Shown: one piece after another, positions 7,000 to 47,710 of the stretch | Layout of the letters: each line of letters opens with the position of its first letter | Position numbering within the stretch: the first letter of the stretch is position 1 | Origin: Fibrobacter sp. | GTDB taxonomy: Bacteria; Fibrobacterota; Fibrobacteria; Fibrobacterales; Fibrobacteraceae | Length of the DNA: 53,558 bases | NCBI GenBank assembly: GCA_017550445.1 | Contig: JAFZOV010000179.1 | Span: 1-53,558 of the forward strand | Direction: 5' to 3' | Notes under the pieces: model-generated | Seen by the model: the letters and a program-made list of their open reading frames with translations, nothing else | Database searches by the model: none | What the model was told of the DNA's origin: nothing | Translations under genes and position numbers: made by a program

Positions 7000-7795
7000 A
7001 GAGGCCGGGATTCAGCTCTGCAACGATTCCTACCAAAATTGGAAATCCCACGGCATTAACGAAAAAGCCCAGCTGATTTTGTCCGACATTCCCTACGCCA
7101 TTGGGACCGACGCTTACGGTAGTAATCCCATGTGGTACGAGGGCGGCGACAACGCTAACGGCGAGTCCAAGCTGGCCGGAAAAGCCTTCTTTGATACTGA
7201 TTACACGTTCCGCGTTAAGGAGTTCCTTCATTTCAGCTCTCAAATGCTGAAACCAGAGCCGAAATCCAACGACGAAGGAAAAGCAATCGGCAAGAACGGC
7301 AAGAAATCCGGCGGGGCCCCGTGCATGATTATCTTTTGCTCGTTTGAGCAGCAATTCCAGCTGATTGAAACGGCAAAGGAGTTCGGATTCAACAACTACA
7401 TTAACCTGGTATTCCGCAAGAACTATTCGGCGCAAGTGCTGAAAGCTAATATGCGCGTTGTTGGTAACTGCGAATACGCCGTGCTGCTGTACCGAAACCG
7501 GCTCCCGAAATTTAACAACAACGGGGCTATGGTCTTTAACTGCTTTGATTGGGTGCGCGACACCGACACTTACAAGGTCCACCCGACACAAAAGAGCGTG
7601 CCGGTGCTGGAGCGCTTAATCTCTATATTTACCGACGAGGGCGACGTGGTGATAGACCCGTGCGCCGGGTCCGGCACTACGCTTTTGGCCGCAGCCAACC
7701 TCAAACGAAAGGCATACGGCTTTGAAATCAAAAAGGATATTTTCAAGGACGCTACCGAGAAGGTCCTCCCGTTTGTTCAACGCCAACTTTTCTAA
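6926..7795 (+). CDS. DNA N4/N6 methyltransferase, beta class
   Basis: A 289-residue amino-methyltransferase with the beta-class order of motifs. Catalytic DIPY (residues 54-57) comes first, then HPTQKS and the SAM-binding DPCAGSGTT near residue 245. It resembles phage enzymes that methylate adenine N6 or cytosine N4. The start is the ATG at 6926; an in-frame TTG at 6920 is the only upstream option. Together with dam and the C5-like protein it makes three modification genes within 7 kb, with no matching nuclease seen. This suggests protection against restriction rather than a restriction system. Confidence 0.88.
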   Translation: MTEKEKQTLEEKRARLRPYPDYLDKEAGIQLCNDSYQNWKSHGINEKAQLILSDIPYAIGTDAYGSNPMWYEGGDNANGESKLAGKAFFDTDYTFRVKEFLHFSSQMLKPEPKSNDEGKAIGKNGKKSGGAPCMIIFCSFEQQFQLIETAKEFGFNNYINLVFRKNYSAQVLKANMRVVGNCEYAVLLYRNRLPKFNNNGAMVFNCFDWVRDTDTYKVHPTQKSVPVLERLISIFTDEGDVVIDPCAGSGTTLLAAANLKRKAYGFEIKKDIFKDATEKVLPFVQRQLF

Positions 7796-7797
7796 TC

Positions 7798-8277
7798 ATG
7801 GCAAGATTTATAGCTTATACGGACGGGTCCTTTGATATGAACGACCAAGTAGGCTCCTCGGCTTTGGTGATTCTGGACGAAAAGCAAGAAAGAATCCTCT
7901 TTGAAAGAGCCGCGGCCCGAAAGTGTGTTTACGACCCGGAAAAGAAACAGCGCAACAACGAGCAAGAGCTCGGCGCTATCATACGAACCCTTATGAGCGT
8001 TCCCGAAGGGAGCCAGCTTTTGATTCATTCGGATTCTCAATACGCCGTGAAAGTCCTTTCGGGCGATTGGGAAGCAAAGGCGAATTTAGGGCTCGTTGAC
8101 CGATTCCACCAGGAGAAACGAAAACGCCGTTTGCGCGTCGAGCTTCGGTGGGTCCGGGGCCACAACGGAAATCCGATGAACGAACGCGCCGACCAGCTCT
8201 GCGCTATGGCTGCTAATAGCGTGCGCAAGGGTGGTCCGGCTGTGTTCCAATCGGAGAGAAACTTGTGCTTTGAATAG
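7798..8277 (+). CDS. rnhA: ribonuclease HI
   Basis: A 159-residue RNase HI with the four catalytic acids in their usual contexts: YTDGS (Asp9), NEQEL (Glu57), IHSDSQYAV (Asp79) and NERADQL near residue 130. RGHNGNPMNERAD matches the family's C-terminal histidine-loop region. It cleaves the RNA strand of RNA-DNA hybrids and probably removes primers or processes replication R-loops. It is the last gene of the upstream early operon: the next base after its stop starts a double TCAATAC promoter element. Confidence 0.93.
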   Translation: MARFIAYTDGSFDMNDQVGSSALVILDEKQERILFERAAARKCVYDPEKKQRNNEQELGAIIRTLMSVPEGSQLLIHSDSQYAVKVLSGDWEAKANLGLVDRFHQEKRKRRLRVELRWVRGHNGNPMNERADQLCAMAANSVRKGGPAVFQSERNLCFE

Positions 8278-8330
8278 TCAATACAAGTCAATACAAATTG
8301 CGCTTTATTGGCAAAACGAGCTTACCTTTG
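8278..8330 (+). promoter_or_regulatory. phage promoter with double TCAATAC box
   Basis: TCAATAC occurs at 8278-8284 and 8288-8294, exactly 10 bp apart. Then come 3 nt, TTG (8298-8300), 22 nt and TACCTTTG (8323-8330), the Bacteroidetes -7 box. The same build occurs at three other promoters here. The 7-bp boxes sit where an activator on one face of the helix would touch polymerase. It drives the replication genes after a leader of about 140 nt. Confidence 0.75.
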
Positions 8331-8387
8331 TGTGCTCCTTTTTGTGACGATTAAGGACGCGCAAATACTGACATATAGGCTTAACGC

Positions 8388-8469
8388 CACAATTATAGGT
8401 TTTCGCCCCGTATCTTAATCGTCACCTCCGTAAGGAGAAGATGCGGGGCGAGAACTTTTTATAATTGTG
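8388..8469 (+). promoter_or_regulatory. long structured leader hairpin before replication gene
   Basis: CACAATTATA (8388-8397) pairs perfectly with TATAATTGTG (8460-8469). Inside, 8403-8416 pairs with 8438-8451 (14 bp, one G-U). At the tip CTCC (8426-8429) pairs with GGAG (8434-8437) around a GTAA loop, a GNRA-type tetraloop. AAGGAG precedes an ATG at 8441 that opens a seven-codon ORF (MRGENFL). The hairpin ends 7 nt before the next gene's ATG. It may be a regulatory 5' leader, a processed RNA or an mRNA stabiliser. Confidence 0.7.
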
Positions 8470-8476
8470 ACGAGTT

Positions 8477-9241
8477 ATGAAAACCTTTGTAACTATGGGG
8501 CATATCAAACTGCACCGAAAACTCTTTGAGTGGGAATGGTACGGAGTGCCGGAAATGACGGCTCTTTGGATTCACTTACTCCTTTCCGCTAATTGGGAAC
8601 AAAAGACGTGGCGCGGCCTGGTGATTGAACGCGGGCAATTCGTTACCTCTTTATCGACGCTCGCCAATGATACCGGCCTTTCATTCTCACAAGTTAGGCT
8701 ATGTTTAAAGCGGCTTCAAGATAGCGGACAAATAAAAATTGACGCGACAAACCAAATGACAAAGATAACTATTTGTAATTACGATAGTTACCAAGACAAA
8801 GGCGACTCGCAAACACAAACGGATAACACGCCGGAGAGCAATCAAAACGCATCTGAAACAGCAACAACTAAAGAAGTAAAGAAGATAAGAAGAAAAGAAA
8901 ATAATAATATATACTCGTCTGACGCCGACAAAGTTTATGCCGCCTATCCGACCAAGTGCCCGATTTCCGGGCGGTCCCTCGGCAAGTCCTCATCTGACAA
9001 AAAGAAGATTGAGAGATTACTTAAAGCCGGGCGAACGCCGGAAGAGCTCATTTCAACTATTGAGCATTATATTGCCGACTGCAGTAAGACGAACACCTAC
9101 GCAAAGAACTTCTCTACCTTCTTGAATAATCTTCCAGACTATTCGGAACCCGAAACCGAGTCAGCGACGACAACGCCGCAAAATTCGCTGTTCTATTTCG
9201 AGAACGGCGAGCGTAATCGCTTTAGAGTACCGCAGACATGA
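8477..9241 (+). CDS. replication initiation protein with winged-helix domain
   Basis: A 254-residue protein of the type common in Bacteroides phages just before the primase-helicase. The N-terminal ~100 residues contain GHIKLHRKLFEWEWY, a WRGLVIERGQFVTSL segment and TGLSFSQVRLCLKRL, which reads as a winged-helix DNA-binding fold (phage O/DnaD-like). A polar linker follows (about 110-145), then a helical C-terminal domain beginning near YAAYPTKCP. It probably recognises the phage origin and loads the helicase. Met7 is an alternative start. Its end overlaps the next gene by 4 nt. Confidence 0.7.
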   Translation: MKTFVTMGHIKLHRKLFEWEWYGVPEMTALWIHLLLSANWEQKTWRGLVIERGQFVTSLSTLANDTGLSFSQVRLCLKRLQDSGQIKIDATNQMTKITICNYDSYQDKGDSQTQTDNTPESNQNASETATTKEVKKIRRKENNNIYSSDADKVYAAYPTKCPISGRSLGKSSSDKKKIERLLKAGRTPEELISTIEHYIADCSKTNTYAKNFSTFLNNLPDYSEPETESATTTPQNSLFYFENGERNRFRVPQT

Positions 9242-11283
9242 TTAACGAGCAAGAAATACGGCGCTGGTGGGATTTGTTCAAGCGTGACAACCCGCTAACC
9301 GAAATTCGCATTTTGGGCCACGGAAAAACCTTCTCCGGGTATTATACCAACCCAGAGCAAGTGATTAACGACATTCGGGCCTACGACGCTTACGGCATAT
9401 ACGCCACGATTAACGCCGTCAAGGAGTCGTGCTACGGGCGTACACAGCACGACTGCATTATTTCCAAACCGAAAGCCACCACGTCCGATACCGATATTGA
9501 GTGCCGGACCACGCTGCTGATTGACCTGGACCCGGAACGCTCCAGCGACACCAACGCCTCTGACGAGGAAAAGGCTGCCGCGTGGCAAACGGCAAAAGCG
9601 ATTTGTCAGTACCTTTCGGACCAGGGCTTTGAAAAGCCGGTGATTGCCGATTCTGCAAACGGCTATCATCTGCTCTATAAGATTTACCTCGGGAACACAC
9701 CGGAAACCACGGAGCTAATCAAAAACTTTCTCCAAGTTCTTGATATGCTCTTTTCTAATGACGCTGTAAAGATTGACACAAGCGTATTCAACGCCTCGCG
9801 TATCTCGAAGCTCATTGGGACCAAATCGGCAAAGGGAACCGACACCCCGGAGCGCCCGCAGCGACAGTCCTTCTTCGTGTACGTCCCGGATAACTACAAG
9901 TCGGTCGATATTGCCTATATCCGCAAGGTCGCGGACCTGCTCCCGAAACCGGAACAGCCCAGCCGCCACAATAACTACTCTACGGAGAAATTCGACATTC
10001 GCGGCTTTATTGCCGAGCACGGGATTAAGATTGCGAAAGAGTCCAGATTCTCCGGGGGCTTGAAGCTGGTGCTGGAAGAGTGCCCGTTCGGGGGCCACAA
10101 GGCTCCGGATTCGGCGCTGTTCGTCATGGATTCCGGGGCAATCGCTTTCAGGTGCTTGCACAATTCCTGCCAGCATTTCCATTGGCGGGAGTTCCGCTTG
10201 CACTACGACCCGCAAGCCTACGACCGACACGACCGCGAAGAATACGCCCGTAAACGCACTTACTACGGACGGGTTGACCCGAAACCCGTTGAGCCGATAA
10301 AAGAGGACGAGAGGGGTAAAAAATGGCTTTCAATGAGCGATATTGTATGGCAGGACCCGTCGCAACTCATAAGCATACCCTCCGGGGTGGAAGCCCTGGA
10401 CCGAAAAATTATGGGATTCACGCTCGGCGACCTTACGATATTCTCCGGGCTGTCCGGGGCTGGTAAAACTACGTTTTTGGATTTCTTTGCGCTTAACGCT
10501 GTGCAAAGGGGCTACAAAACGGCGATATTCTCCGGGGAGCTGCAGAGCTCGCGCTTTCAGTCGTGGATAGACCAAATGGCCGCCGGTAAGACGTTTGTTC
10601 AGCAAAAGGCCGGGTTTGAGAATATCTACTACGCGCCGAAGCGGATTGCTGACCAAGTGAACCAATGGCTCGACGACAAGCTGTATCTCTACAACAACGA
10701 CTACGGCTCGAATTGGGACCAGCTGTACCAAGAAATCGTGACTATCATTCACGAAAAGGGCGTGCGGCTCGTTATGATTGACAACCTAATGGCGCTTGAC
10801 TTTGACTCCGAGAGCGGCGACCAGAACACCAGGGAAACGCGCTTTATCAAGCAGTTTAAAGACCTCTGCAAGCGTGAAAATATCCACGGGATTCTTGTGT
10901 GCCACCCGCGAAAGGAGCAATCATTCCAGCTGCTCCGCAAAGAGTCTATCGCCGGTACGGCCAATCTTACGAACCTTTGCGATAACCTGATTATTTCGCA
11001 CCGGGTCGGTAACGACTTCGTGAAACGCGCAAAGGACTTTTTCGGCGAGGCAAAGGTAGCGGAGCTTATGGCGTATGACGTTGTGCTGGAGGTCGTTAAA
11101 AACCGGTCTATCGGCGTGACGGATTACCTCATTGGGCTGTACTACGAAGCGGAAACCCGGCGTATCAAAAACGACGTTGCGGAAAATATCATTTTCGGCT
11201 GGCAAGAGCAGCCGGTCCAAACGACGTTTGAGGAACCGGAAACGGAGCCGCAAAACGAGGAAATCGACGACTTACCCTTTTAG
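9238..11283 (+). CDS. fused primase and DnaB-type helicase
   Basis: A 681-residue replication protein. The N-terminal part resembles archaeo-eukaryotic primases: a LLIDLDPE acidic pair (Asp96/Asp98) and NGYHLLYK with the conserved His (141-148). A zinc-binding segment follows (Cys282, Cys306, Cys311 and neighbouring His). The C-terminal RecA-like ATPase has Walker A GLSGAGKT (404-411) and Walker B LVMIDNLMA near 510, as in DnaB/Twinkle. It should prime and unwind the replication fork. The extreme C-terminus, EEIDDLPF, closely copies the SSB acidic tip. A second helicase (48901-50247) is also present. Confidence 0.88.
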   Translation: MINEQEIRRWWDLFKRDNPLTEIRILGHGKTFSGYYTNPEQVINDIRAYDAYGIYATINAVKESCYGRTQHDCIISKPKATTSDTDIECRTTLLIDLDPERSSDTNASDEEKAAAWQTAKAICQYLSDQGFEKPVIADSANGYHLLYKIYLGNTPETTELIKNFLQVLDMLFSNDAVKIDTSVFNASRISKLIGTKSAKGTDTPERPQRQSFFVYVPDNYKSVDIAYIRKVADLLPKPEQPSRHNNYSTEKFDIRGFIAEHGIKIAKESRFSGGLKLVLEECPFGGHKAPDSALFVMDSGAIAFRCLHNSCQHFHWREFRLHYDPQAYDRHDREEYARKRTYYGRVDPKPVEPIKEDERGKKWLSMSDIVWQDPSQLISIPSGVEALDRKIMGFTLGDLTIFSGLSGAGKTTFLDFFALNAVQRGYKTAIFSGELQSSRFQSWIDQMAAGKTFVQQKAGFENIYYAPKRIADQVNQWLDDKLYLYNNDYGSNWDQLYQEIVTIIHEKGVRLVMIDNLMALDFDSESGDQNTRETRFIKQFKDLCKRENIHGILVCHPRKEQSFQLLRKESIAGTANLTNLCDNLIISHRVGNDFVKRAKDFFGEAKVAELMAYDVVLEVVKNRSIGVTDYLIGLYYEAETRRIKNDVAENIIFGWQEQPVQTTFEEPETEPQNEEIDDLPF

Positions 11284-11286
11284 ACT

Positions 11287-11520
11287 ATGGCAGAACAAAT
11301 CCATTACTACAAGACTATCTCCGGGGCCGCGCACTTTGCCGAAACCGGAGTAGTCAAAAACGAGGCCAAGTTAGGCCAATATCTCCGTATGCTCCGGTAC
11401 GCCAAAAAAGAGCCGGTGCAAATGTTCCTTGATTACCCGCAAGACTTTGAGGAAATCAAGCGTCTATTCAAATTCCCCAATGGGACAACATGGCAGGACG
11501 TTTATTTAGAGAACGTATGA
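11287..11520 (+). CDS. 77-residue hypothetical protein
   Basis: A small protein, 3 nt downstream of the primase-helicase stop and overlapping the next gene by 4 nt (ATGA). It is rich in aromatic and charged residues, with a LRMLRYAKKEP helix in the middle. No family or motif is recognised. Tight spacing suggests co-expression with the replication genes. Confidence 0.55.
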   Translation: MAEQIHYYKTISGAAHFAETGVVKNEAKLGQYLRMLRYAKKEPVQMFLDYPQDFEEIKRLFKFPNGTTWQDVYLENV

Positions 11521-11705
11521 ACAAATCAGATTTACGCCGGGTTTCCCGGGCGCAGCGCCACATAAAGAAGGCGCTTATAGAATTGGGCCGCGTTCAGTTC
11601 GACGGGGTTAAAAAGCCCGAATACGACAAGGTTATGGCCGTGATTCTCACTACTACCGACTTGTATTGTAACATTGAAGATTTAACAACTAAACAACATG
11701 ATTAA
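11517..11705 (+). CDS. 62-residue hypothetical protein
   Basis: A short, basic, helical protein (RRVSRAQRHIKKALIELG near its start). The ATG at 11517 overlaps the previous stop in an ATGA junction; the longer reading from 11490 would be internal to the previous gene. Its end overlaps the start of the diversified lectin-like gene by 8 nt, so the two are probably translationally coupled. Function unknown. Confidence 0.55.
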   Translation: MNKSDLRRVSRAQRHIKKALIELGRVQFDGVKKPEYDKVMAVILTTTDLYCNIEDLTTKQHD

Positions 11706-12231
11706 AGACCTGAACGCCCTTATCGAGAGGGCAAAAGTCGTCGTAAACGACAAAAACACCGGTATCGCTATCCGCGAGGCCGTGGCAAACCTTTTCGACT
11801 TTAAACCGAATTGGATTCCAGAAGAGCGTCATTGGGTTGATTTGGGGCTCCCGTCCGGCAACCTTTGGTATGATTCCAACGGCGAGGTTAACGGCAACGA
11901 GTTCTTTAACCATGACGACGCGCTGGAGGCGTTTGGTGAGTATCTTCCCAGCGCTACCTCAATGGCGGAGCTTTATGAAAATTGCGAGTGGGAATGGACC
12001 GGGAGCGGCTATAAAGTTACCGGGCCCAACGGCAAGTCAATCGCGCTTCCTGCCCGTGGACGGAACGAATGTAGAAGCACGGAATACGGGTATTATTGGA
12101 CCTCTTGTAAGAGTAAAACAAGCCAGGCCGGCGCCCGCTTCCTCTACTTCGGCAGCGGCGGCGTGGGCCCGTTGGCCGACGACTACCGTAGCTACGGCTT
12201 TTCCGTGCGCCCGTGCCGAGAATTAGTTTAA
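11698..12231 (+). CDS. second DGR target: C-type-lectin-like variable protein
   Basis: A 177-residue protein with an N-terminal helical part (residues 1-35, with GIAIREAVANLF). A domain follows beginning HWVDLGLPSGNLWYD, a start typical of Bacteroidetes C-type-lectin-like/FGE-like proteins. It ends in the diversified segment SQAGARFLYF..., RSYGFSVRPCRELV. The last ~100 nt match the DGR template in every base except 18 template adenines. No signal peptide, transmembrane segment or tail-fibre domain is seen, so how it reaches a ligand is unclear. It is 7 kb from the retroelement, on the opposite strand, inside the early operon. Confidence 0.85.
   Translation: MIKDLNALIERAKVVVNDKNTGIAIREAVANLFDFKPNWIPEERHWVDLGLPSGNLWYDSNGEVNGNEFFNHDDALEAFGEYLPSATSMAELYENCEWEWTGSGYKVTGPNGKSIALPARGRNECRSTEYGYYWTSCKSKTSQAGARFLYFGSGGVGPLADDYRSYGFSVRPCRELV
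12121..12220 (+). repeat. DGR variable region 2 (VR2)
   Basis: One hundred bases aligned without gaps to the coding-strand complement of the template repeat (19559-19658). I count 18 differences, all where the template has A (mostly AAC codons), changing 12 residues: Asn to Gly, Phe, Tyr, Ala or Asp, and Thr to Ala. The final 26 nt are identical to the template, as expected for the initiation-of-mutagenic-homology end. Similarity stops at 12121. Confidence 0.93.
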
Positions 12232-12241
12232 TCCTTTATCC

Positions 12242-12266
12242 GTCCCCGCCTTACCGTGGCGGGGAC
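12242..12266 (+). promoter_or_regulatory. DGR target hairpin downstream of VR2
   Basis: GTCCCCGCC (12242-12250) pairs perfectly with GGCGGGGAC (12258-12266) around the loop TTACCGT. It begins 21 nt after VR2. VR1 has a hairpin with the same loop at 22 nt. In the Bordetella phage DGR, a hairpin or cruciform just downstream of VR is needed for retrohoming, which is the likely role here. A weak terminator role is an alternative, but there is no T-run. Confidence 0.8.
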
Positions 12267-12280
12267 ATTTCATTAAAGCC

Positions 12281-12637
12281 ATGAACAAAAAACTAAAAAC
12301 CGAATTTTCGGCCACGTTTATAGCGCTCTTAATCGTGGTCGTTTTGTGTATTCCGCTTTGCTCGCTCAAACTGATTAACCGGACCGAGCAACAACACGTC
12401 ATTAACGAAATATCAAAGATTCAGGAAGTAAGCGGCTCCGACGGAAATGTTAGCACTACTACTTACTATCTTGTGCACACGGATAAGGGCACTTTTAAAA
12501 TTGAAATGGCGGGTCTTAACGCGGCTCCGTATTGCGCTGGAATCATTCACGAAGGCGATACGCTGAACCTTATTACCCGTGGCGTTCTATTCCCGCTTTT
12601 CGGCCTATATCCATACATAATAGCCGTAAACGAATGA
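12281..12637 (+). CDS. membrane-anchored hypothetical protein
   Basis: A 118-residue protein with one N-terminal transmembrane helix (about residues 10-31, FIALLIVVVLCIPLCSL) after a short basic tail. An extracytoplasmic, mostly beta segment follows, and a hydrophobic C-terminus (about 98-114). A periplasmic-facing or superinfection-exclusion-like role is possible, but no family is recognised. It starts 15 nt after the VR2 hairpin and overlaps the next gene (ATGA). Confidence 0.6.
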   Translation: MNKKLKTEFSATFIALLIVVVLCIPLCSLKLINRTEQQHVINEISKIQEVSGSDGNVSTTTYYLVHTDKGTFKIEMAGLNAAPYCAGIIHEGDTLNLITRGVLFPLFGLYPYIIAVNE

Positions 12638-12939
12638 GGACCAAATTAGTTAACCGGGACCCGTTTAGCAACGGGACTGAACACGAGGTTTGGGAGGAAA
12701 TGAATTGTGAAAAATGCGTGAAGGGCTCTCACTATAAGGGCGAAGATAGCGACGGGCTGGACGTATGGACGAAAATTAAGTGCTCTATTCAGCGCGACAT
12801 ATATACCCGTATGTGCAGCGACGAGCCGATAGCCCAGCGGACTATTGACGCTTGCAGTCACGACATTTGCCCGTATCTCCAAACCGAGCGGAAACGCTAT
12901 GAGAAAAACAAGGGACTCCCGAAATTATTTGAGATATGA
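12634..12939 (+). CDS. Cys-rich hypothetical protein
   Basis: A 101-residue protein with CEKC near residue 22, then further Cys residues ending in HDICPY near 84. This layout suggests a metal-binding module. The ATG at 12634 overlaps the previous stop; a longer upstream reading would shadow the membrane protein. No known family is recognised. It overlaps the next gene by 4 nt. Confidence 0.6.
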   Translation: MRTKLVNRDPFSNGTEHEVWEEMNCEKCVKGSHYKGEDSDGLDVWTKIKCSIQRDIYTRMCSDEPIAQRTIDACSHDICPYLQTERKRYEKNKGLPKLFEI

Positions 12940-13223
12940 CGGCCACAAGTCAAGAACAATCCCAGCGGCTGATTGACGCGGGGATAAAGCAAAATACCGC
13001 CGATATGCAGTACAACGCAGTCCCGACAAAGGACGGGCCGGTAGTTGAGCTGTTCAACGGCGAAGTAACACCCAATGGGCTCCCGGCATGGAGCCTTTCG
13101 GCACTTTGGGACGCGGCCCGCACTTTAGGTATTCCGTTCGTCTTTTCTGACGAAGATACCGGCGAAGATGCTATCCGGTCGCTCGTTTCTCTAATCGAAT
13201 ACAAACTACGCCATGAAAATTAA
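12936..13223 (+). CDS. hypothetical Bacteroides-phage protein
   Basis: A 95-residue protein whose start (QRLIDAGIKQNTADMQY) resembles a small protein seen often in Bacteroides phages and mobile elements. An acidic middle and a helical end (DAIRSLVSLIEYKL) follow. No enzymatic motif is visible. It overlaps both neighbours (4 nt and 11 nt). Confidence 0.6.
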   Translation: MTATSQEQSQRLIDAGIKQNTADMQYNAVPTKDGPVVELFNGEVTPNGLPAWSLSALWDAARTLGIPFVFSDEDTGEDAIRSLVSLIEYKLRHEN

Positions 13224-13428
13224 AAAGATTATCAGCCAGAATCGCCGCGATTTCTACGCTATCTATGAGTGCGAGCACTGCGGCCACACCCACGAGGGCT
13301 CCGGCTATGACGACGCGCATTTTCACCACAACGTAATCCCGGATATGGTCTGCCCCGTTTGCGGCAAGAAAGCAGGTGACGACTACCGCCCGCTGGAAAC
13401 GAAATATCCGGAGGGTATGCAGGTATGA
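13213..13428 (+). CDS. small zinc-ribbon protein
   Basis: A 71-residue protein with CEHCGH (about 18-23) and CPVCGKK (about 51-57), two knuckles separated by a His-rich loop (FHHN). This is the layout of a zinc ribbon. Such small phage proteins often bind nucleic acids or host polymerase. The partner is unknown. It overlaps the next ORF by 4 nt. Confidence 0.7.
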   Translation: MKIKKIISQNRRDFYAIYECEHCGHTHEGSGYDDAHFHHNVIPDMVCPVCGKKAGDDYRPLETKYPEGMQV

Positions 13429-13580
13429 CCTACGCAGAGTTAGAGCAAAAAGCCAAGCGCTATTGCAAAGAGTTCCCGGACCAAGACCCGGTGACAATCT
13501 TTATTAACGGATTTATTCAAGGCGGAGCCGAATACGAAAGGGAGCTCCGCGAAAAATTCAAGGAGGAATTTCAATGGTAA
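13425..13580 (+). CDS. 51-residue hypothetical protein
   Basis: A short helical acidic ORF from the ATG at 13425 (overlapping the zinc-ribbon stop) to the TAA at 13578-13580, overlapping the next gene by 7 nt. It contains GFIQGGAEYERELREKF, a segment often seen at the end of small phage proteins. Function unknown; the overlaps support its reality. Confidence 0.5.
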   Translation: MTYAELEQKAKRYCKEFPDQDPVTIFINGFIQGGAEYERELREKFKEEFQW

Positions 13581-13840
13581 AAAGAGAAATCTATATCGAA
13601 ATAGATATAGATAAAGACGACGAGCCCGGAAGTCACGGGCCAGCAGATGCGACGCTTTCCGTTTTCGAGGACGGCGAACTAAAAGATAAGTGGACCCCGG
13701 CGCAGCTTGTATCGACGGCACGAATGCTCGCCGGATTCGCCTTGCAGCTGTTAGACAAGTCCTTGGAGTCGCTCGTTGAAGTCGAAAAGCATATCGACAA
13801 AGACGGCAATATTCACGTAGTTAAACAGCCCGAAAAATGA
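13574..13840 (+). CDS. 88-residue hypothetical protein
   Basis: A small acidic protein: a beta-rich start (REIYIEIDIDKD), an ATLSVFEDGEL strand pair, a helix (LVSTARMLAGFALQLLDKS) and a beta tail (DGNIHVV). No family is recognised. It overlaps both neighbours, within the rightward accessory run between the VR2 gene and the tRNAs. Confidence 0.55.
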   Translation: MVKREIYIEIDIDKDDEPGSHGPADATLSVFEDGELKDKWTPAQLVSTARMLAGFALQLLDKSLESLVEVEKHIDKDGNIHVVKQPEK

Positions 13841-14472
13841 CAAAGAAAGAACTTTGCGAGCTCGGGCTAAAGGGCGCTGGTCGCGTCCACGCGAAAGGCG
13901 ACACGATAGCGCCGATTCTCCCGTTTCTTTTGGCTGATATAGCCTATCAATGCCAGCTGAAAGGGGAAAAGGCTATTGGGCCGCTACGGCACGCTCAAAA
14001 GCAAAAATCGGCCATGTGGCACAAGCAGTATACGCTGTTTAACCGCCCGTTTTTCTCACTCATTCCAGCCGAAAATCAAGAGGAAGTAACCGACCTCATG
14101 GACTCGCTGTATGAATATATCTCAAACGAGATTGTCATGCTCCAAAGTGGAATACTCCAAATGTTCGACGGGGTGGATTTCGAGCAAAAGAAAAACGTAA
14201 GCTGGTTCATGCTGGCCCATATCTTTGCTCAATTCGCAAACGCGGCGTGGAAAAACGTAAACTATCACGTAAGACGCGCCCCGTATGGTGACGTTCTGGA
14301 GCCGGAAACAAACGACGTTCTGAATCGGCTCCGGGACTATTCCTTCGGAATGGCTATGGCCTACCTTCGCGGGCTCCCGGGAAAAGGCGAAATCACTATT
14401 TCAAACCTCAAATCAGATAACCTATTCACGGTTATTTCGAGGAAAATTCACGAATGGCTAAAAGAGAACTAA
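13837..14472 (+). CDS. hypothetical helical protein
   Basis: A 211-residue protein, the largest in this run. It is strongly helical, with a Phe/Met-rich middle (SWFMLAHIFAQFANAAW) that looks amphipathic rather than membrane-spanning. No motif is recognised. It overlaps the previous gene by 4 nt and sits 1 nt from the next. It is possibly a host-interaction protein, with no direct evidence. Confidence 0.55.
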   Translation: MTKKELCELGLKGAGRVHAKGDTIAPILPFLLADIAYQCQLKGEKAIGPLRHAQKQKSAMWHKQYTLFNRPFFSLIPAENQEEVTDLMDSLYEYISNEIVMLQSGILQMFDGVDFEQKKNVSWFMLAHIFAQFANAAWKNVNYHVRRAPYGDVLEPETNDVLNRLRDYSFGMAMAYLRGLPGKGEITISNLKSDNLFTVISRKIHEWLKEN

Positions 14473-14473
14473 A

Positions 14474-14902
14474 ATGACTGAAACTATAATTATCCTCGCG
14501 GTCGTGCTTATAGCGCTGGCCGCTTTTAATATGTGGTCTGCAATCAAGAGCCGCAATATCGAAAAGGACCTCAAAGCCCGCAAAAGCGAGCTTGAACGCC
14601 TGCAGCAAATCATTGAGATTCGGGAGAGGGCCGCAAACGTAGTAATGGCGGAGGCCCAGCGCATTAAAGACGAAAACGACCTTACAAGCCAGGAAGTAAG
14701 GCCGGTCAGGGCCATGTACGTTGTGAGCGAATCCGACGAATACCGGTACAACAACGAGAAGCTAATGGCAAAGGGCGTAAAGAAACAGCTAACAGCCGCG
14801 CTGGCCGATTCCCTTGCCCGGGAATTTGGCGCACCGGAAGAGGGCCAAACGCCGGAGGGGCGCAAGATTTTCTCATACAATTTTGTCGTTAAGCGGGTAT
14901 GA
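14474..14902 (+). CDS. membrane-anchored coiled-coil protein
   Basis: A 142-residue protein with one N-terminal transmembrane helix (about 4-22, IIILAVVLIALAAFNMW). A charged coiled coil follows (about 25-75, many Glu, Lys and Arg with Leu spacing), then a small mixed domain. The N-terminus resembles an anchored spanin or Rz-like layout, but it lies in the early region far from the lysis genes. Function unknown. Confidence 0.6.
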   Translation: MTETIIILAVVLIALAAFNMWSAIKSRNIEKDLKARKSELERLQQIIEIRERAANVVMAEAQRIKDENDLTSQEVRPVRAMYVVSESDEYRYNNEKLMAKGVKKQLTAALADSLAREFGAPEEGQTPEGRKIFSYNFVVKRV

Positions 14903-15072
14903 TAACGGTTAAGGAACTGAAGGAATTTTTAGCCCAGCTTCCGGAGGGGTCCGATGATTTGGAACTCAAATACGATAATGGATTCGACTATAACGAAATC
15001 CAGGCTATTCGGCCAAAGTACTCGCCGGACTTACGAAACCTGGATAAGCCGATTTTCCTCGCAATTATGTAG
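14899..15072 (+). CDS. 57-residue hypothetical protein
   Basis: A short ORF beginning ITVKELKEFLAQLPEG and ending in a Leu/Ile-rich strand. This plan (a helix, then LPDD-like acidic beta strands) is typical of small phage proteins of unknown role. The ATG at 14899 overlaps the previous stop; the next gene begins 3 nt later. Confidence 0.5.
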   Translation: MITVKELKEFLAQLPEGSDDLELKYDNGFDYNEIQAIRPKYSPDLRNLDKPIFLAIM

Positions 15073-15075
15073 CTT

Positions 15076-15312
15076 ATGGAATGGCACGATTTTGAAAACT
15101 ACCCTCCGCCAGCGCCGGTGAACCGGGACCATACGGATTTTCTTTGCCGGGTCGTAGGGTTGCCGTACATGGAATACGTCGTGTTCCGGTATGACGGCAA
15201 ACATTGGTGGAGCTATTTGCCGCCGGGGCTCTTTGATAGCTTTGCCGGCGGTTGGGTTGGCCTACCACGCGGGGCCAAAATCACTCATTGGGCCTTCATT
15301 GAGCCCATGTAA
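15076..15312 (+). CDS. DUF551-like small protein
   Basis: A 78-residue protein rich in Trp, Tyr and Pro. Its plan (WHDFENYPPPAP, CRVVGLPYMEYVVFRY, WWSY, ITHWAFIEPM) resembles DUF551-type phage proteins, which end in a THWMPLPEPP-like segment. The function of that family is unknown. It is the last gene of the rightward early operon; an intrinsic terminator follows its stop by 3 nt. Confidence 0.6.
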   Translation: MEWHDFENYPPPAPVNRDHTDFLCRVVGLPYMEYVVFRYDGKHWWSYLPPGLFDSFAGGWVGLPRGAKITHWAFIEPM

Positions 15313-15315
15313 CCG

Positions 15316-15354
15316 CAAGGCTCTTCGTGAAAAAATCACGGAGGGCCTTGTTTT
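15316..15354 (+). terminator. intrinsic terminator of the early operon
   Basis: CAAGGC and CTTCGTG (15316-15329) pair with CACGGAG and GCCTTG (15337-15350) across an A-rich loop, followed by TTTT. It follows the last early gene and overlaps the -33 TTG of the tRNA promoter. Confidence 0.8.
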
Positions 15355-15378
15355 ATTGATTTTTGTTGCGTACCTTTG
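15348..15378 (+). promoter_or_regulatory. Bacteroidetes-type promoter for the tRNA cluster
   Basis: TTG (15348-15350), 20 nt, then TACCTTTG (15371-15378). This is the canonical spacing, without the TCAATAC boxes. It lies 72 nt upstream of tRNA-Lys. Confidence 0.75.
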
Positions 15379-15449
15379 CACCCGTGATTACGAATCTGAA
15401 ACATAAACGCTAACCGATTGGCCTCCTTGCTGCGGGGTCAATAACAACT

Positions 15450-15522
15450 GACCTTGTGGCGCAATCGGTAGCGCACCGGGCTTTTAACCCGGGTGTTGAG
15501 GGTTCGAGCCCCTCCGGGGTCA
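15450..15522 (+). tRNA. tRNA-Lys (anticodon TTT)
   Basis: A complete 73-nt cloverleaf. Acceptor GACCTTG pairs with CGGGGTC, the anticodon stem CCGGG/CCCGG encloses CTTTTAA (anticodon TTT), and the T arm is GAGGG-TTCGAGC-CCCTC. No CCA is encoded. A tRNA-Lys reading AAA/AAG may supplement the host pool, and AAG is also the codon at the candidate frameshift site in the tail chaperone gene. Confidence 0.92.
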
Positions 15523-15643
15523 CAAAGGCCGTGTAAAGCAAAATCAGAATATTTCGCGGTCTTTTCTTTGAAATAAACGGAGCGCATTGGCAAAGTAGAG
15601 CTACCGCCAGCCGCTTACCAAGTCACCTCCGTAAACATATAAT

Positions 15644-15718
15644 TGTGGGGTAGAGCAGAAGTAAGCTCGCCGGGCTCATAACCCGGAGGTCGTGGTTGAG
15701 CATTTCCCACCCCCGCAA
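15644..15718 (+). tRNA. tRNA-Met-like (anticodon CAT) with odd T arm
   Basis: Acceptor TGTGGGG pairs with CCCCGCA, the D stem GAGC/GCTC is perfect, and the anticodon stem CCGGG/CCCGG encloses CTCATAA (CAT). The T arm is abnormal: GTGG pairs with CCAC, but 19 nt are present where 17 are usual, and the TTCGA loop signature is disrupted (TTGAGCATT). It may be a functional divergent phage tRNA (elongator Met, or lysidine-type Ile) or a decaying one. Confidence 0.7.
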
Positions 15719-15762
15719 CAACGTATCCAAACGCTGAGCGCTCGCCGGAGGATACAAAATGA

Positions 15763-15795
15763 AGCCGAGGTGCAAATTAAGCACCCCGGCTTTTT
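15763..15795 (+). terminator. terminator between converging operons
   Basis: AGCCGAGGTGC (15763-15773) pairs with GCACCCCGGCT (15781-15791) with one mismatch across AAATTAA, followed by TTTT on the plus strand. On the minus strand the run is weaker. It separates the tRNA transcript from the leftward lysis operon ending at 15855. An extra GTATCC/GGATAC inverted repeat lies just upstream (15723-15754). Confidence 0.75.
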
Positions 15796-15854
15796 CGTTG
15801 GATTTCAACAGCTCGCGTGTTTCGCATTACCGGAGCTGGATTGGCCCAACGAAG

Positions 15855-16163
15855 CTATATCCATGCAAACAGCTGAATCACGAAAGCGCCCAGCACAAAC
15901 GCCAGGGCGTTCCACCATTTCGGCTCTTTGTTTGTAAACACCCGGATAAAGCAGATTATCGCAGCCAGCATAGCCAGCGGGAAAATCGGCCACGCTATTG
16001 CACCCGGGAACACTATTACCAAGAAGGCGCAGGCAATCATTCCGAGAATGAAATAGACGTACTTTGATACCGGGATTCGGAGCAGAAGGTCAACTACCTT
16101 CTTCCAGAGGGACGATACGAAATTCTTAATCGCGTCCCAAATCTTTTTAAAAAAGTCTTTCAT
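15855..16163 (-). CDS. small membrane protein, lysis region
   Basis: A 102-residue protein. Its start at 16163 gives a plausible MKDFFKKIWDAIKNF amphipathic opening; the longer reading adds an unrelated low-complexity stretch. Three hydrophobic segments follow (about 34-50, 54-70 and 82-100). As the last gene of the leftward lysis cassette it may be an accessory holin or antiholin. That role is inferred from location and topology only. Confidence 0.6.
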   Translation of the reverse strand: MKDFFKKIWDAIKNFVSSLWKKVVDLLLRIPVSKYVYFILGMIACAFLVIVFPGAIAWPIFPLAMLAAIICFIRVFTNKEPKWWNALAFVLGAFVIQLFAWI

Positions 16164-16167
16164 TGTG

Positions 16168-16464: not shown

Positions 16465-16467
16465 GGC

Positions 16468-17477: not shown

Positions 17478-17482
17478 GGCTA

Positions 17483-17977: not shown

Positions 17978-17980
17978 GGC

Positions 17981-18334
17981 CTAATCCCCCAAGATGCGCC
18001 GAGCCTCTGCCTTGCAGGACTCGGCAAAGCTGTTGAAAGCGTCAAACTCTGCGTCCGCGCCTTCGTCACCGGCAATCTTGTGGCGCATGATAGCCTCCAC
18101 GTCGGACTGCGAATAGCTGGTACGAATCAGCGCGTCAACGATAACACCCTTTTCGAGAGCGTCAACGTCCACAGCGTCGTACAAATAAGTGGTTACTTCC
18201 TCCGTCACCTTTTCCTCGGTTTCGGGGTCCACGGTTTCCACAGTTTCGGTGTGTACTTCCTCGTTGTAGAAGCAACGGATTTTACCGTTGTTCAGGGCAG
18301 CGGTGCGCTGCGGTTCAGAAAATTGGTACTTCAT
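17981..18334 (-). CDS. hypothetical acidic protein after the DGR
   Basis: A 117-residue acidic protein (Glu/Thr-rich repeats of VETVDPETEEKV type, about 28-50, then helices). It resembles small tail-fibre accessory or assembly proteins that follow tail genes, but no family is recognised. Its start overlaps the reverse transcriptase stop by 20 nt, so its translation may be coupled to RT. It is 3 nt upstream of the holin gene. Confidence 0.55.
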   Translation of the reverse strand: MKYQFSEPQRTAALNNGKIRCFYNEEVHTETVETVDPETEEKVTEEVTTYLYDAVDVDALEKGVIVDALIRTSYSQSDVEAIMRHKIAGDEGADAEFDAFNSFAESCKAEARRILGD

Positions 18335-19511
18335 TGTATGTAGGGTTTAAGATGATTGCTTTCTTGCGGTCCGCGGTGAAAAGGAAAACCTTTCGCGCGT
18401 GCTCGGATTTCTCGATTGCGTGCCCGACTACTTTTGCGTCGTCAAAGTGCTGCAGATAACCGAGCCGGGAATTGACAATAGCCAGCTCTTTTTCAAGGTT
18501 CACTTGATTACCGGCGGCTATCTTCTTATCGAGCGCTTTCATAGCCGCATTGAACTTGTCAACGGATTTCGGCGTCGCCATTCTGCGGAACGGCAGGAAC
18601 ACGACACCGAGATACACGTTCGGCTCATAGACGCTGGTTATGCTTGTCTTGCGGTCGTTGACTCTTAAATGGAGTTCGTTCCAAAGGAACTCCTTGCTAC
18701 GGCCCAGGCAATCCTCCAGATATGCGCGGCTTTCGTGCATTTGCCGGGAGTCGTCAACATAGCGGTCGTAGCATTTTATTTTCAGCACCCGTTTCACAAA
18801 TTGGTCGAACGGGTTAAGGTAGATATTGCTTTTGAGCTGGTTAATCACGTCACCAATCGGGAGGCCAACACCCTCCGGCTGGCCGAAAAGGCTCTTGTTT
18901 GGCTGAACGAGCCGACGGAGATTCGGATTCCCATGATAGCGGGAGCCCTTCAGCGGATTGCGGAACAAAAAGGCCCGCAGCATATAGTCGGTAAAGCCAT
19001 AGTCAATCGCCTCGGGGAAACGGGCCCGGAATTTCGCCAAATCGGCGCAAATCATATTATAGAGTATCATTCGGTCTATCGACATGAAATAGCCCGAAAT
19101 ATCAATGTTTAGACAATAAGCGTCGCGCATAAAGTTGTTGGTTACACTGCGCAAGTGGTGTTCAAACCGATTTATTCCGAAAAGCGTTCCCTTACCGGCC
19201 CTGCAGGAATGGCTATCGTAGATAAACAAGCGGTTGTAAATCGGCTCGAGAATAGAGAAAAGCACATGACTTACTATTCTATCCCGGAATTGGGGTGCAA
19301 AGACTTCTCTCACGGAGGGTTCCGTAAGCACAAAGAAGTCCAGCGGTTCGGGACTCCACCGCCGTTTGAACAAGTCCCACGCGAGCTCCCGGAGGCCCGT
19401 TTCTACCACCAGCTCGAATTTGAGCGGCTCGGCTTCGGACCGTTCGTGTTCCCGCGCTTTGAGATAGCCAAAGACCGTAAGGCGGTGTATTTCCTCGAAA
19501 GAATATATCAT
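18315..19511 (-). CDS. DGR reverse transcriptase
   Basis: A 398-residue group-II-intron-like reverse transcriptase of the DGR type. Motif A is NIDISGYFMSID (Asp136), motif B GLPIGDVINQ (about 217-225; DGR enzymes have IGxxxSQ, here with Asn for Ser), and the active site YVDD is at 251-254. A conserved APQFRDRIV and YDSHSCRAGKG N-terminal region is also present. It copies the template RNA with errors at adenines and, with Avd, feeds mutated cDNA into the variable regions. The frame is open upstream through the template repeat to 19997, but the ATG at 19511 starts after the template and gives the family length. Confidence 0.95.
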   Translation of the reverse strand: MIYSFEEIHRLTVFGYLKAREHERSEAEPLKFELVVETGLRELAWDLFKRRWSPEPLDFFVLTEPSVREVFAPQFRDRIVSHVLFSILEPIYNRLFIYDSHSCRAGKGTLFGINRFEHHLRSVTNNFMRDAYCLNIDISGYFMSIDRMILYNMICADLAKFRARFPEAIDYGFTDYMLRAFLFRNPLKGSRYHGNPNLRRLVQPNKSLFGQPEGVGLPIGDVINQLKSNIYLNPFDQFVKRVLKIKCYDRYVDDSRQMHESRAYLEDCLGRSKEFLWNELHLRVNDRKTSITSVYEPNVYLGVVFLPFRRMATPKSVDKFNAAMKALDKKIAAGNQVNLEKELAIVNSRLGYLQHFDDAKVVGHAIEKSEHARKVFLFTADRKKAIILNPTYNEVPIF

Positions 19512-19990
19512 GTTTATTTCATAAAAAGCATATCGGCGGCTTATTGGTTTATCTAATACTCGGCACGGGCGCACGGAAAAGCCGTTGCTACGGTTGTTGT
19601 TGTTCAACGGGTTCACGTTGCCGCTGTTGAAGTTGAGGTTGCGGGCGTTGGTCTGGCTAATCGGAGCAAAACTCCAATAGTTGCCGTTGCTCGATACGTT
19701 CGTCAACGCTCCACTACCGTTGTTCCGGTAGCCGGAAGCCGCGAACAGCACAAACGCGCGGGGGCTTTGTGCAAGAGCACCCGTGTTTGAGCACGCTGTC
19801 TTGAATGAATGTAAATCCGGGAGCGACTTAACGCTGACGGAAATGCAGACTTCGGGGAGCTCGTCCCTTGTAATAGTGGGCCTTTTGCAAGGCGCAGCGT
19901 GCTGAATTAAATTGAACCCATGACGGCAGTTGCTACGAAAAGCACGACCGCCGTTCCCGGTCCAACAACCTCCCGATATGCTTGTGTTTG
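19512..19990 (-). ncRNA. DGR RNA region containing the template repeat
   Basis: The 479 bases between avd and the RT start hold no independent gene. In the Bordetella DGR the equivalent avd-TR-rt RNA is the template and carries structured spacers needed for priming. Here there are about 245 nt upstream of TR, TR itself, and a 47-nt spacer before RT. The in-frame open reading across it is probably incidental. Confidence 0.7.
19559..19745 (-). repeat. DGR template repeat (TR)
   Basis: A 187-nt repeat aligned without gaps to VR1 (20563-20749), with 23 differences, all opposite coding-strand A in TR. It is packed with AAC (Asn) codons, as in YRNNGSG and PLNNNNRSNG, which can mutate to most amino acids but not to stops at these positions. 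The last 26 coding-strand bases are identical in TR, VR1 and VR2. No hairpin follows it, unlike the two VRs. Confidence 0.95.
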
Positions 19991-20347
19991 TTAGCATTTC
20001 GTTGATTCAGCCCAGCCGTTAAGTTGTCTTTCAACGTCCGCTTCAAGGCGCATGATTGCTGCATAACCCTCCTTGCCGATAATGTGCAGGTCGTAATAAA
20101 TCCGCACGCGGACCTCGAAGAAGTTAAGATTTCGCAAGCTACGCATGATAAACTCATGGCGGCTTGATTTATCTTCCTCCTGGTACTTGTTGGCCCAAAT
20201 GATATTCTCCATTATGCCGAACACAAGCTCTTGAAGCTGTGAAAGCTGGTGCATACGGAAATTCCTCGGGACCTTTTGCGTACTCCTTTCGAGCTGGATA
20301 TACAGCTGGCGGGCGGAGTTATAAACGGGTAGCTGGTGTGCGTCCAT
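19991..20347 (-). CDS. avd: DGR accessory variability determinant
   Basis: A 118-residue, basic, all-helical protein like the four-helix-bundle Avd/S23-type proteins: VPRNFRMHQLSQLQELVFGIMENI, then ANKYQEEDKSSRHEFIMRSLRNLNFFEVRVRIYYDL (in parts) and a C-terminal helix ending QLNGW. Bordetella Avd has the same PRK-x-x helix start and a GSW end. It forms a pentamer that binds RT and template RNA. The ATG at 20347 is preferred; a TTG at 20371 is the only longer start. It overlaps the small upstream ORF by 29 nt. Confidence 0.9.
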   Translation of the reverse strand: MDAHQLPVYNSARQLYIQLERSTQKVPRNFRMHQLSQLQELVFGIMENIIWANKYQEEDKSSRHEFIMRSLRNLNFFEVRVRIYYDLHIIGKEGYAAIMRLEADVERQLNGWAESTKC

Positions 20348-20495
20348 AGCGCTCTTTAAGTTTCCGGACAAAGTTCATACAATCAACCGGCGTGGCGCTC
20401 GATAAATCAAAGTCTTGTATCTCTTTGATTACGGACTCGCTACGCTTATTCAAAAGGGTTACTCTCGAATGTTTGATTATATGGAAATCGAACAT
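20319..20495 (-). CDS. 58-residue protein between VR1 gene and avd
   Basis: A short ORF starting MFDFHIIKHSRVTLL and ending in the basic KLKERYGRTPATRL. It lies between the DGR target gene hairpin and avd and overlaps the avd start by 29 nt, so the two are probably co-translated. It is not part of the classical Bordetella DGR. It may be a tail gene of its own or a small DGR accessory. No motif is recognised. Confidence 0.55.
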   Translation of the reverse strand: MFDFHIIKHSRVTLLNKRSESVIKEIQDFDLSSATPVDCMNFVRKLKERYGRTPATRL

Positions 20496-20513: not shown

Positions 20514-20540
20514 CCCTGCGCCCACGGTAAGGGCGCAGGG
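20514..20540 (-). promoter_or_regulatory. DGR target hairpin downstream of VR1
   Basis: CCCTGCGCCC (20514-20523) pairs perfectly with GGGCGCAGGG (20531-20540). The loop on the coding strand is TTACCGT. It begins 22 nt after the end of VR1, just past the stop codon. The loop is identical to that of the VR2 hairpin although the stems differ, which argues for function in target recognition rather than termination. Confidence 0.85.
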
Positions 20541-20551
20541 GGTTAAAGGTT

Positions 20552-21913
20552 TTAATCAGATTCTCGGCACGGGCGCACGGAAAAGCCGTAGCTACGGCGG
20601 CTGTTGTACAACGGGCCCACGGCGCCGCTGAAGAAGAGGAGGTAGCGGGCGTTGGCCTGGCTAATCGGAGCAAAACTCCAATAGTAGCCGAGGCTCGACA
20701 CGTCCGTCAACGCTCCACTACCGCCGTCCCGGTAGCCGGAAGCCGCGAAGTAGTTACCCTGCGCGTCGCTCGCGTTACGCATGAAGCTCCAGCCGTTAGC
20801 CCAGGAGCCAACAACATTGAACTGCGTAGAATCGGACGAGTTAGAACCGGTGGTCGTAAAGCCGGTGAACGCACGGCCAGCGGGCAGCATGAAGCCGACC
20901 GGGCACGGGTCGTAAATGGTCTTTACGGCGCTGTCCTGATTGTCACCGGTGTTATCACCGCCGCCGGTAATCGCCGCGTTCCAGAAGTTGTTGAACCACG
21001 TAAGGTTATTCCAATTATGGCTCGTCTGGTCGTAGCGCGTAAAGAACAAATTGGGGTTCTTAATGGCGTTGGCGACCGTCTTTGTGGAAAGCTGGTCGGA
21101 ATCAGCGCCCAGCACGCCAAATCCGGTGTAAACGGCGTTGTTAATGTCGTAGAGCGTCATTTGAGAAGAGGACGAGTACGATGCTGGCGGGGCCATAGGG
21201 TCCTTGCGTCCCCATTGGTAATGAGGATTGCAGCACCGGGTACGGGCCTCGTTCCAAATCGTACCGAGGTTCTCGCTCATGAGCTTGTAGGCAACGTCGG
21301 TGTGATTCGTGAAGTTTTCCGGGCCGAGTGCGTCGGAGGTGAGCCAAATGGTCCAGCTCCACATGATATTGCCGCCGGAATCCTTGACGAACAGCACGGC
21401 AAGTCCGTTTGTGGCGGGCACGCTGCCCACGGTGAACTGAATGTACTTGCAGTCGCCGCCCTCAACGAGCGATACGCTGGTGATAAGGCTTTGGCCGGTC
21501 TGCCAAAGGAGGCCTGCGGTGGCGGGCTGGCAGTTGGCGTTTTTCTCGATATACGGGGAGGTAATCGTGTTGCCGAGGTGGTTCACGAAATCAGCCGTAT
21601 AGGTCGAGCCTTGGCGGGTGTATGCTGCGGTATTGGCAACGCCGCGCTTGATACCGTTTCCGTACACAAGCGGGAACTTATAGACTCCAGCGGTGCGCAC
21701 AACATAGCAGTTGGCGGTTTCGCGGAGAATGAGAGAGGTCCCGTCCACGGTGAACATGGAGAGGTCCTTTGCGACCGCGACGAGCTTTTCAGCGTCAAAG
21801 CTGATTGCGTCGCCGGTGGTCTTGTCATGGAGCAATACGGCCTTCCCTGCAACGAGGGCGGGGTCGCTGTAAACCGTCAAATCGGTTACGGGGGTTTCAG
21901 TTGCTGCTGGCAT
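20552..21913 (-). CDS. DGR target: tail-associated receptor-binding protein
   Basis: A 453-residue protein. The N-terminal ~250 residues are beta-rich without clear motifs. The C-terminal ~200 form a C-type-lectin-like module (TIYDPCPVGFMLPAGRAF, GYYWSFAPIS, YGFSVRPCRESD). The last ~62 residues are encoded by VR1, where 15 residues differ from the template. Its place between the giant tail protein and the DGR genes matches phage receptor-binding proteins such as Bordetella Mtd. It probably sits at the tail tip and switches host receptor. The VR ends next to the stop codon. Confidence 0.9.
   Translation of the reverse strand: MPAATETPVTDLTVYSDPALVAGKAVLLHDKTTGDAISFDAEKLVAVAKDLSMFTVDGTSLILRETANCYVVRTAGVYKFPLVYGNGIKRGVANTAAYTRQGSTYTADFVNHLGNTITSPYIEKNANCQPATAGLLWQTGQSLITSVSLVEGGDCKYIQFTVGSVPATNGLAVLFVKDSGGNIMWSWTIWLTSDALGPENFTNHTDVAYKLMSENLGTIWNEARTRCCNPHYQWGRKDPMAPPASYSSSSQMTLYDINNAVYTGFGVLGADSDQLSTKTVANAIKNPNLFFTRYDQTSHNWNNLTWFNNFWNAAITGGGDNTGDNQDSAVKTIYDPCPVGFMLPAGRAFTGFTTTGSNSSDSTQFNVVGSWANGWSFMRNASDAQGNYFAASGYRDGGSGALTDVSSLGYYWSFAPISQANARYLLFFSGAVGPLYNSRRSYGFSVRPCRESD
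20563..20749 (-). repeat. DGR variable region 1 (VR1)
   Basis: 187 nt aligned to TR at a constant offset of 1004 nt with no gaps. The 23 mismatches all fall at template adenines; one (GTA to GTG) is silent. Changed residues are Asn to Asp, Gly, Leu, Tyr, Phe, Ala, Ser or Arg, and one Thr to Ala. This is the direct footprint of adenine-specific mutagenic retrohoming. Confidence 0.96.
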
Positions 21914-47508: not shown

Positions 47509-47710
47509 TTAAAAGTTAGGACCGATTAGGGCGTATGCCACAAAGGCAACGATAAGGGTAAGGGCAAGGACCTCCGAACCCGTCAAGGGCAAGGGTAACG
47601 TCAGTACCGCCGGAGCGGCGTTTTTCAGTTGCGAGCCGGAGCCATTTTTGCTTTTCAATAGCAAGCAATTCCCAAAATTGCTCTTATGTTGTGCGAACGT
47701 GCACGGGTGA
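47509..47710 (-). other. gap with weak hydrophobic ORF
   Basis: Between the 82-residue gene and the tRNA, one frame ends at 47509 with a hydrophobic stretch (TGSEVLALTLIVAFVAYALIG), like a single membrane helix. Its only ATGs lie inside the tRNA, so the start is unclear; a non-ATG start after the tRNA is possible. I cannot confirm a gene here. Confidence 0.25.

What the first reader, a model, noticed from the sequence alone, without database searches (positions are those of the whole stretch)
12121..12220. Second, remote DGR target on the opposite strand in the early region
The last 100 nt of the gene at 11698-12231 match TR in all but 18 positions, every one a TR adenine, and share the identical 26-nt mutagenic-homology end. 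This gene is about 7.4 kb from the retroelement, in opposite orientation, and inside the replication-side operon rather than the tail operon. One template thus serves two target genes in different expression classes. The product is a small lectin-like protein with no tail domain, signal peptide or membrane anchor. Its role may be a virion-attached or early-expressed variable binder, which is unusual for a phage.
Basis: partly seen in the sequence, partly recalled or inferred. Interest (0 to 1): 0.95.

Follow-up and report, generated by a model that had tools for sequence, protein, structure and literature searches.

The report
Remote second target for phage hypermutation
A small lectin-like gene among the DNA-replication genes of this phage, likely a phage of ruminant gut bacteria, carries the mark of the phage's own mutation machine 7.3 kb away on the other strand, and in two related phage genomes the matching gene holds all 18 differences found between them; it is likely rewritten again and again to give new binding proteins, whose use to the phage is untested.

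Summary
VR2 (12121-12220, +) differs from the template repeat at 18 of 100 positions, all at template adenines (P 4e-13), ends in an identical 27-nt run and is followed by a hairpin that the template lacks. The sequence 5' of VR2 is unrelated to the template, so this is no duplication of the near target gene. Remote targets recur in nine other phage or prophage records read here, four of them also on the opposite strand. In the pair G004/G005 all 18 differences in 46,694 aligned bases lie in the remote VR, while template and near VR are identical: the remote target changes, and can do so alone. The window has only two perfect hairpins with stem of 8 bp or more and a 7-nt loop; they follow the two targets, share the loop TTACCGT and have different stems. 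The protein is a predicted C-type lectin domain without a visible signal; its function is inferred only. Remote, opposite-strand, non-structural second targets are already in print (Quimbyvirus; Bacuni phages; four gut prophage species), so the arrangement is not new. New here: the protein family beside a primase/helicase, the near-isogenic pair, and shared, phage-specific hairpin loops longer than the published tetraloop.

The parts
11698..12231 (+). remote target gene, 177 aa, predicted C-type lectin fold at residues 42-177
   Evidence: ORF; model pLDDT 92.5; VIA-align rows
12121..12220 (+). VR2
   Evidence: 18 of 18 mismatches to TR at TR adenines
12194..12220 (+). 27-nt run identical to TR (IMH-type end); next base is A, in TR it is T
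12242..12266 (+). hairpin 3' of VR2: 9-bp stem, loop TTACCGT
19559..19745 (-). template repeat TR; 19559-19658 pairs with VR2
20563..20749 (-). VR1, near target
   Evidence: 15 of 15 mismatches at TR adenines in the 100 nt shared with VR2
20514..20540 (-). hairpin 3' of VR1: 10-bp stem, loop TTACCGT
20552..21913 (-). near target gene, 453 aa, one gene away from a 2643-aa tail-type protein (22200-30131)
   Evidence: ORFs; PHROG tail fiber hit of the 2643-aa protein
18315..19511 (-). DGR reverse transcriptase (ATG read at 19511; searches used 18315-19505)
   Evidence: RVT_1 1.6e-10; phrog_1423 1.4e-71
19991..20371 (-). Avd-type accessory protein
   Evidence: phrog_3206 'Avd protein of DGR' 3.3e-11; Pfam bAvd 23 bits, below its cut-off of 40
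9238..11283 (+). primase/helicase upstream of the remote target gene (two small ORFs lie between)
   Evidence: same order in L001 and L002

Best explanation
The 3' end of the gene at 11698-12231 (VR2, 12121-12220) is likely a second, remote target of the retroelement at 18315-20371: over 100 nt it differs from the template only at template adenines, it has the same 27-nt end and a hairpin follows it, so it would be overwritten by mutagenized cDNA from the one template that also serves the tail-side gene. Shown: the A-only mismatches; a hairpin at both targets and none at TR; natural variation at the remote target alone in near-identical relatives. Inferred from BPP-1 work: RT and Avd copy TR RNA with errors at A, and the cDNA enters a gene that has the IMH end plus a hairpin, whatever its strand or distance; the phage-specific loop likely helps to mark a site as a target. 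Inferred, about 0.45: the signal-less lectin-fold protein is made with the replication genes and works inside the infected cell as a changeable binder in the conflict with the host or with other phages, not as a tail part. The confidence given is for the target-site part.
For: 18 of 18 mismatches at TR adenines, P 4.3e-13. Hairpins after VR1 and VR2, none after TR, and the only two perfect ones (stem 8 or more, loop 7) in the window. G004 against G005: 18 differences in 46,694 aligned bases, all in the remote VR, 16 of 18 at TR adenines; TR and near VR identical. G014 and the G004-type proteins P0020-P0024 and P0028 show more VR2 versions; P0001 differs from the window protein only inside VR2. 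Remote targets also in G003, G012, G015, G029, G030, G031, G021. Complete DGR present: RT, Avd, TR, near VR. Replication-type neighbours in window, L001, L002, G012, G010, G031; methyltransferases 3.9 and 4.9 kb upstream in the window.
Against: No reads of this phage were seen; variation comes from assemblies of relatives. 2 of 18 G004/G005 differences are not at TR adenines, and the G003 remote VR has 1 non-A mismatch in 90 nt. Seven VR2-bearing records show no RT match (G001, G002; G010, G011, G013, G014, G016), though all may be fragments. No perfect hairpin was found after the remote VR of L002 and G013 nor after the near VR of G021. Nothing here tests expression time or place of action; G003's gene has no clear replication neighbours, and those of G004/G005 are mostly unassigned.
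Confidence: 0.85

Rival explanations
1. Same mutation mechanism, but the remote protein is an accessory virion adhesin or decoration protein that is merely encoded away from the tail genes.
For: Its fold is that of adhesin-type C-type lectin domains; the Bacuni authors propose that both of their targets serve host adhesion (PMC8143477); in G003 the gene lies beside small unassigned genes that are not clearly replication genes.
Against: No tail family hit; placed among replication genes on the other strand in the window; two small N-terminal helices only.
Confidence: 0.35
2. VR2 is a relic: a past copying event or recombination from VR1, no longer active.
For: No activity was measured in this phage.
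Against: VR1 and VR2 differ at 15 positions, all TR adenines; live variation in G004/G005/G014 and P0001; signals intact.
Confidence: 0.08
3. The hairpins are ordinary transcription terminators and say nothing about targeting.
For: They follow stop codons and are GC-rich; other perfect hairpins with loops of 7-8 nt exist in G003, G004, G015, G019 and G029.
Against: In the window no T-run follows either hairpin; loops of the two targets are identical in 6 of 7 rumen phages with both hairpins read, while the stem pairs that differ are changed on both sides; comparable hairpins are needed for BPP-1 homing (PMC3240598).
Confidence: 0.1

Closest known systems
Quimbyvirus DGR (PMC8008677; passages read)
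   Same: Two C-type lectin targets; the second is distal to the structural genes and on the opposite strand, with methyltransferases nearby; authors infer a role in conflict.
   Different: Protein homology of the second target not tested (sequence not held); the Quimbyvirus RT is split over three frames, here it is one ORF.
Bacuni phages F1-F4 of Bacteroides uniformis (PMC8143477; passages; record MT806185 read)
   Same: One near and one remote target; in F4 the remote gene lies between a cytosine methyltransferase gene and, one hypothetical gene further on, DNA polymerase A, without a visible signal; F1 and F2 differ by 15 SNPs in the secondary VR.
   Different: Same strand as the DGR; loops GAAA and GCAA; RT 32% identical over part; N-terminus unlike the window's.
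Four gut prophage species with a distal second VR (PMC12629997; passages)
   Same: Second VR far from the RT cassette, near counter-defence genes such as a DNA methyltransferase.
   Different: Sequences not compared here.
BPP-1 target recognition (PMC3240598; passages)
   Same: IMH end plus GC-rich hairpin 3' of VR; stems differ, loops conserved.
   Different: BPP-1-type loops are 4 nt (GRNA); here 5-13 nt and phage-specific.
Tentaclin phages nd4/nd12 (PMC10743442; passages)
   Same: Two lectin-domain targets from one TR, both variable across related genomes.
   Different: Described as two targets within DGR cassettes; one VR is in the 5' part of its gene.

Membership tests
Diversity-generating retroelement | DGR-type reverse transcriptase | tested here: met
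   RVT_1 41.5 bits, cut-off 29.6; phrog_1423 1.4e-71; YVDD visible in the translation
Diversity-generating retroelement | accessory Avd protein | tested here: met
   phrog_3206 3.3e-11; Pfam bAvd only below its cut-off
Diversity-generating retroelement | TR/VR pair with mismatches at TR adenines | tested here: met
   VR2 18 of 18, VR1 15 of 15 in the shared 100 nt
Diversity-generating retroelement | variable residues on a C-type lectin fold | tested here: met
Diversity-generating retroelement | RT-dependent activity at this target | not testable with these tools
   Only natural variation in relatives
BPP-1-type target hairpin | 7-10 bp GC-rich stem 3' of VR, absent at TR | tested here: met
   9- and 10-bp stems at VR2 and VR1, none at TR
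BPP-1-type target hairpin | 4-nt GRNA loop | tested here: not met
   Loop TTACCGT, 7 nt
Quimbyvirus-type remote second target | target distal to structural genes and on the opposite strand | tested here: met
   7.3 kb, opposite strand, among replication genes
Quimbyvirus-type remote second target | methyltransferases within 7 kb | tested here: met
   5834-6763 and 6920-7795, 4.9 and 3.9 kb upstream of the gene
Quimbyvirus-type remote second target | homologous target protein | not tested
   Quimbyvirus sequence not fetched

The most novel reading that the evidence does not exclude
One phage template feeds two kinds of weapon: a variable tail-side protein for entry and a variable free lectin for use inside the infected cell. 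The hairpin loop is the address code: each retroelement lineage reads its own loop, so a gene that gains the IMH end plus that loop joins the mutation programme, and its strand relative to replication sets how fast it changes.
Probability: 0.25. Interest if true: 0.85.

Novelty: new variant of a known kind. Interest (0 to 1): 0.57.

Why it matters
Surveys can miss remote targets (stated in PMC8144416), and the role of second targets is called open in print (PMC8008677; PMC10743442). Here a defined protein family, a near-isogenic pair in which only the remote VR differs, and target hairpins that share a loop within a phage but mostly not between phages make three questions testable: whether the loop is read by the machinery, whether remote targets change on their own, and what a hypervariable protein of the replication region binds. 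PMC12875486 reports that target orientation relative to replication changes editing rates, which gives opposite-strand targets a testable meaning.

Tried and rejected
Duplication of the near target gene as source of VR2: rejected, 18 of 87 positions match 5' of VR2, about chance. Further targets in the window: none at the scan's threshold. A link between loop and template cassette: the loops of window, G003, G012, G015 and G029 occur in the cassette only at the VR1 hairpin, plus one further TTACCGT at 18282 in the window; the 5-nt strings of G004 and G031 are too short to judge. Near relatives: no match of 8000-20000 in 50,697 phage records; the protein has one hit there, 30% identity over 53%. 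PDB sequence search with the family profile: 0. Foldseek: 0 of 658 PDB and 0 of 872 viral matches at E 0.001. GC skew shows no clear origin, so the orientation effect could not be applied. RT relatives at 33-35% identity: G006, G007 and G009 have two matches to the remote protein, G008 none; in G006 and G007 the two are TR and near VR; G021 (35%) does have a remote target. In one search, 15 of 22 records, distant homologues included, show no RT match. RT was not searched in G030 and G031. Not looked at one by one: most loci of L066-L096 and L098-L176; one search scanned 20 loci, seven contigs, 74 loci, eight contigs; L130-L176 were not scanned. N-termini: 7 of 36 pairs reached 3 or fewer of 300 shuffles. 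Literature: shared loops were not seen in the listings, and PMC6199706 has no occurrence of hairpin, cruciform, stem or loop (term search); this does not show that they are not in print. Papers were seen as passages or listings only, none in full.

Full report
The observation. The window holds a complete DGR on the - strand: RT 18315-19511, TR 19559-19745, an Avd-type gene 19991-20371 and the near target gene 20552-21913 with VR1 at its 3' end. On the + strand, 7.3 kb away, the gene 11698-12231 ends in VR2. Over 100 nt VR2 differs from TR at 18 positions, all TR adenines out of 28 (P 4.3e-13), all at codon positions 1 or 2; the last 27 nt are identical. VR1 and VR2 differ from each other at 15 of these 100 positions, all TR adenines, so neither is a plain copy of the other. 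The 87 nt 5' of VR2 match the corresponding TR stretch at 18 of 87 positions, about chance, so the gene was not made by duplicating the near target gene. An adenine-tolerant scan shows no third target at its threshold. The window is a tailed phage by its terminase, portal, major head and tape-measure hits.

Target signals. A perfect hairpin follows VR2 after 21 nt and VR1 after 22 nt; none follows TR. With a 7-nt loop and a stem of at least 8 bp these are the only two in the window, both with loop TTACCGT, while 6 of 9 stem pairs compared differ and all 6 are changed on both sides. With 8-nt loops three more exist elsewhere in the window, unrelated in loop. In relatives the loops of VR1 and VR2 are identical in G003 (GTCTGAG), G012 (ACCATTTTAAGGG), G015 (ATTTGGGC), G029 (ATTTCAA) and G031 (CACAA) and differ in G004 (ATTTGGGC, ATTTGCC): 6 of 7 rumen phages with both hairpins read, window included and G005 left out as a twin of G004. 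In G015 the stems are identical too, so that case may be a recent copy. Left out for want of a pair: G014 and G019 (one hairpin each), G021 (none found at VR1), L001, L002, G010, G011, G013 and G030 (remote VR only, and no perfect hairpin in L002 and G013). Bacuni F4 has GAAA and GCAA. Guo 2011 found 7-10 bp stems with GRNA tetraloops and a critical loop (PMC3240598, passages). The present loops are longer and mostly differ by phage (G004 and G015 share one). That they are read by the machinery is inference.

Natural variation. G004 and G005 bear different IMG metagenome numbers and differ at 18 positions in 46,694 aligned bases, all in the remote VR; 16 of 18 are at TR adenines, 2 are not. 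TR and VR1 are identical. G014, 96-97% identical to G004 over its three longest aligned pieces, has a third version. P0001 is 96% identical to the window protein and differs only inside VR2. These are assemblies, so each shows a dominant variant, not a population.

Spread. Eight records, window included, carry an RT at least 47% identical to the window's: window, G003, G004, G005, G012, G015, G019, G029. Seven have a remote target; in G019 a homologous gene is cut by the contig end. G030, G031 and G021 (RT 35%) add three. Thus nine other records have a verified TR/remote-VR pair. Opposite strand: window, G012, G030, G031, G021. Same strand: G003, G004, G005, G015, G029. G029 is likely a prophage: its TR, both VRs and RT lie on a 189-kb contig of a Bacteroidales MAG from goat omasum, which suggests the host group; the MAG could be mis-binned. 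Against a strict link: seven VR2-bearing records show no RT match, one of them 43 kb long (G013), though they may be fragments.

How it likely works. RT and Avd copy TR RNA with errors at adenine; the cDNA enters at the IMH end beside the hairpin of either gene. VR2 takes about 100 nt of the template, VR1 about 190. Steps beyond the sequence pattern are inferred from BPP-1. Function of the remote protein is inferred: intracellular conflict about 0.45, virion adhesin about 0.35.

Novelty. Quimbyvirus (PMC8008677, passages), Bacuni phages (PMC8143477, passages; record MT806185 read) and four gut prophage species (PMC12629997, passages) already show remote second targets; in the first the target is called likely non-structural and is on the opposite strand. 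The finding is therefore a new variant of a known kind. What it adds: the protein family, the near-isogenic pair, and the shared phage-specific loops.

Noticed in passing
G021 74.7-75.5 kb, G030 from 1080, MT806185 6961-7635 (L197): The remote targets of G021 and G030 share an N-terminal helical-looking stretch with the remote target of Bacuni F4 (0 of 300 shuffles reach the score for either pair; the G031-Bacuni pair was not among those at 3 or fewer), which hints at a common N-terminal module of remote targets.
   Followed up: partly
G015 29374-30051: A diverged paralogue of the remote target gene lies directly upstream of it, with a degenerate VR-like end.
   Followed up: no
window 19558 and relatives: The base after CCGAG is A at the VRs and T (window) or C (G003, G004, G015, G019, G029) at TR, a compact IMH/IMH* type difference.
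   Followed up: partly
window 6338-6445: 27-nt tandem repeat inside the D12-type methyltransferase gene, giving repeats of LERVARLQN.
   Followed up: no
window 15450-15523, 15644-15718, 47709-47782: tRNA-Lys, a second tRNA-like match found by Rfam only, and tRNA-Ile.
   Followed up: no
L089 (G030) 1080-2068: The reading frame of the remote gene ends inside the template-like stretch in this record: broken copy or assembly error.
   Followed up: no
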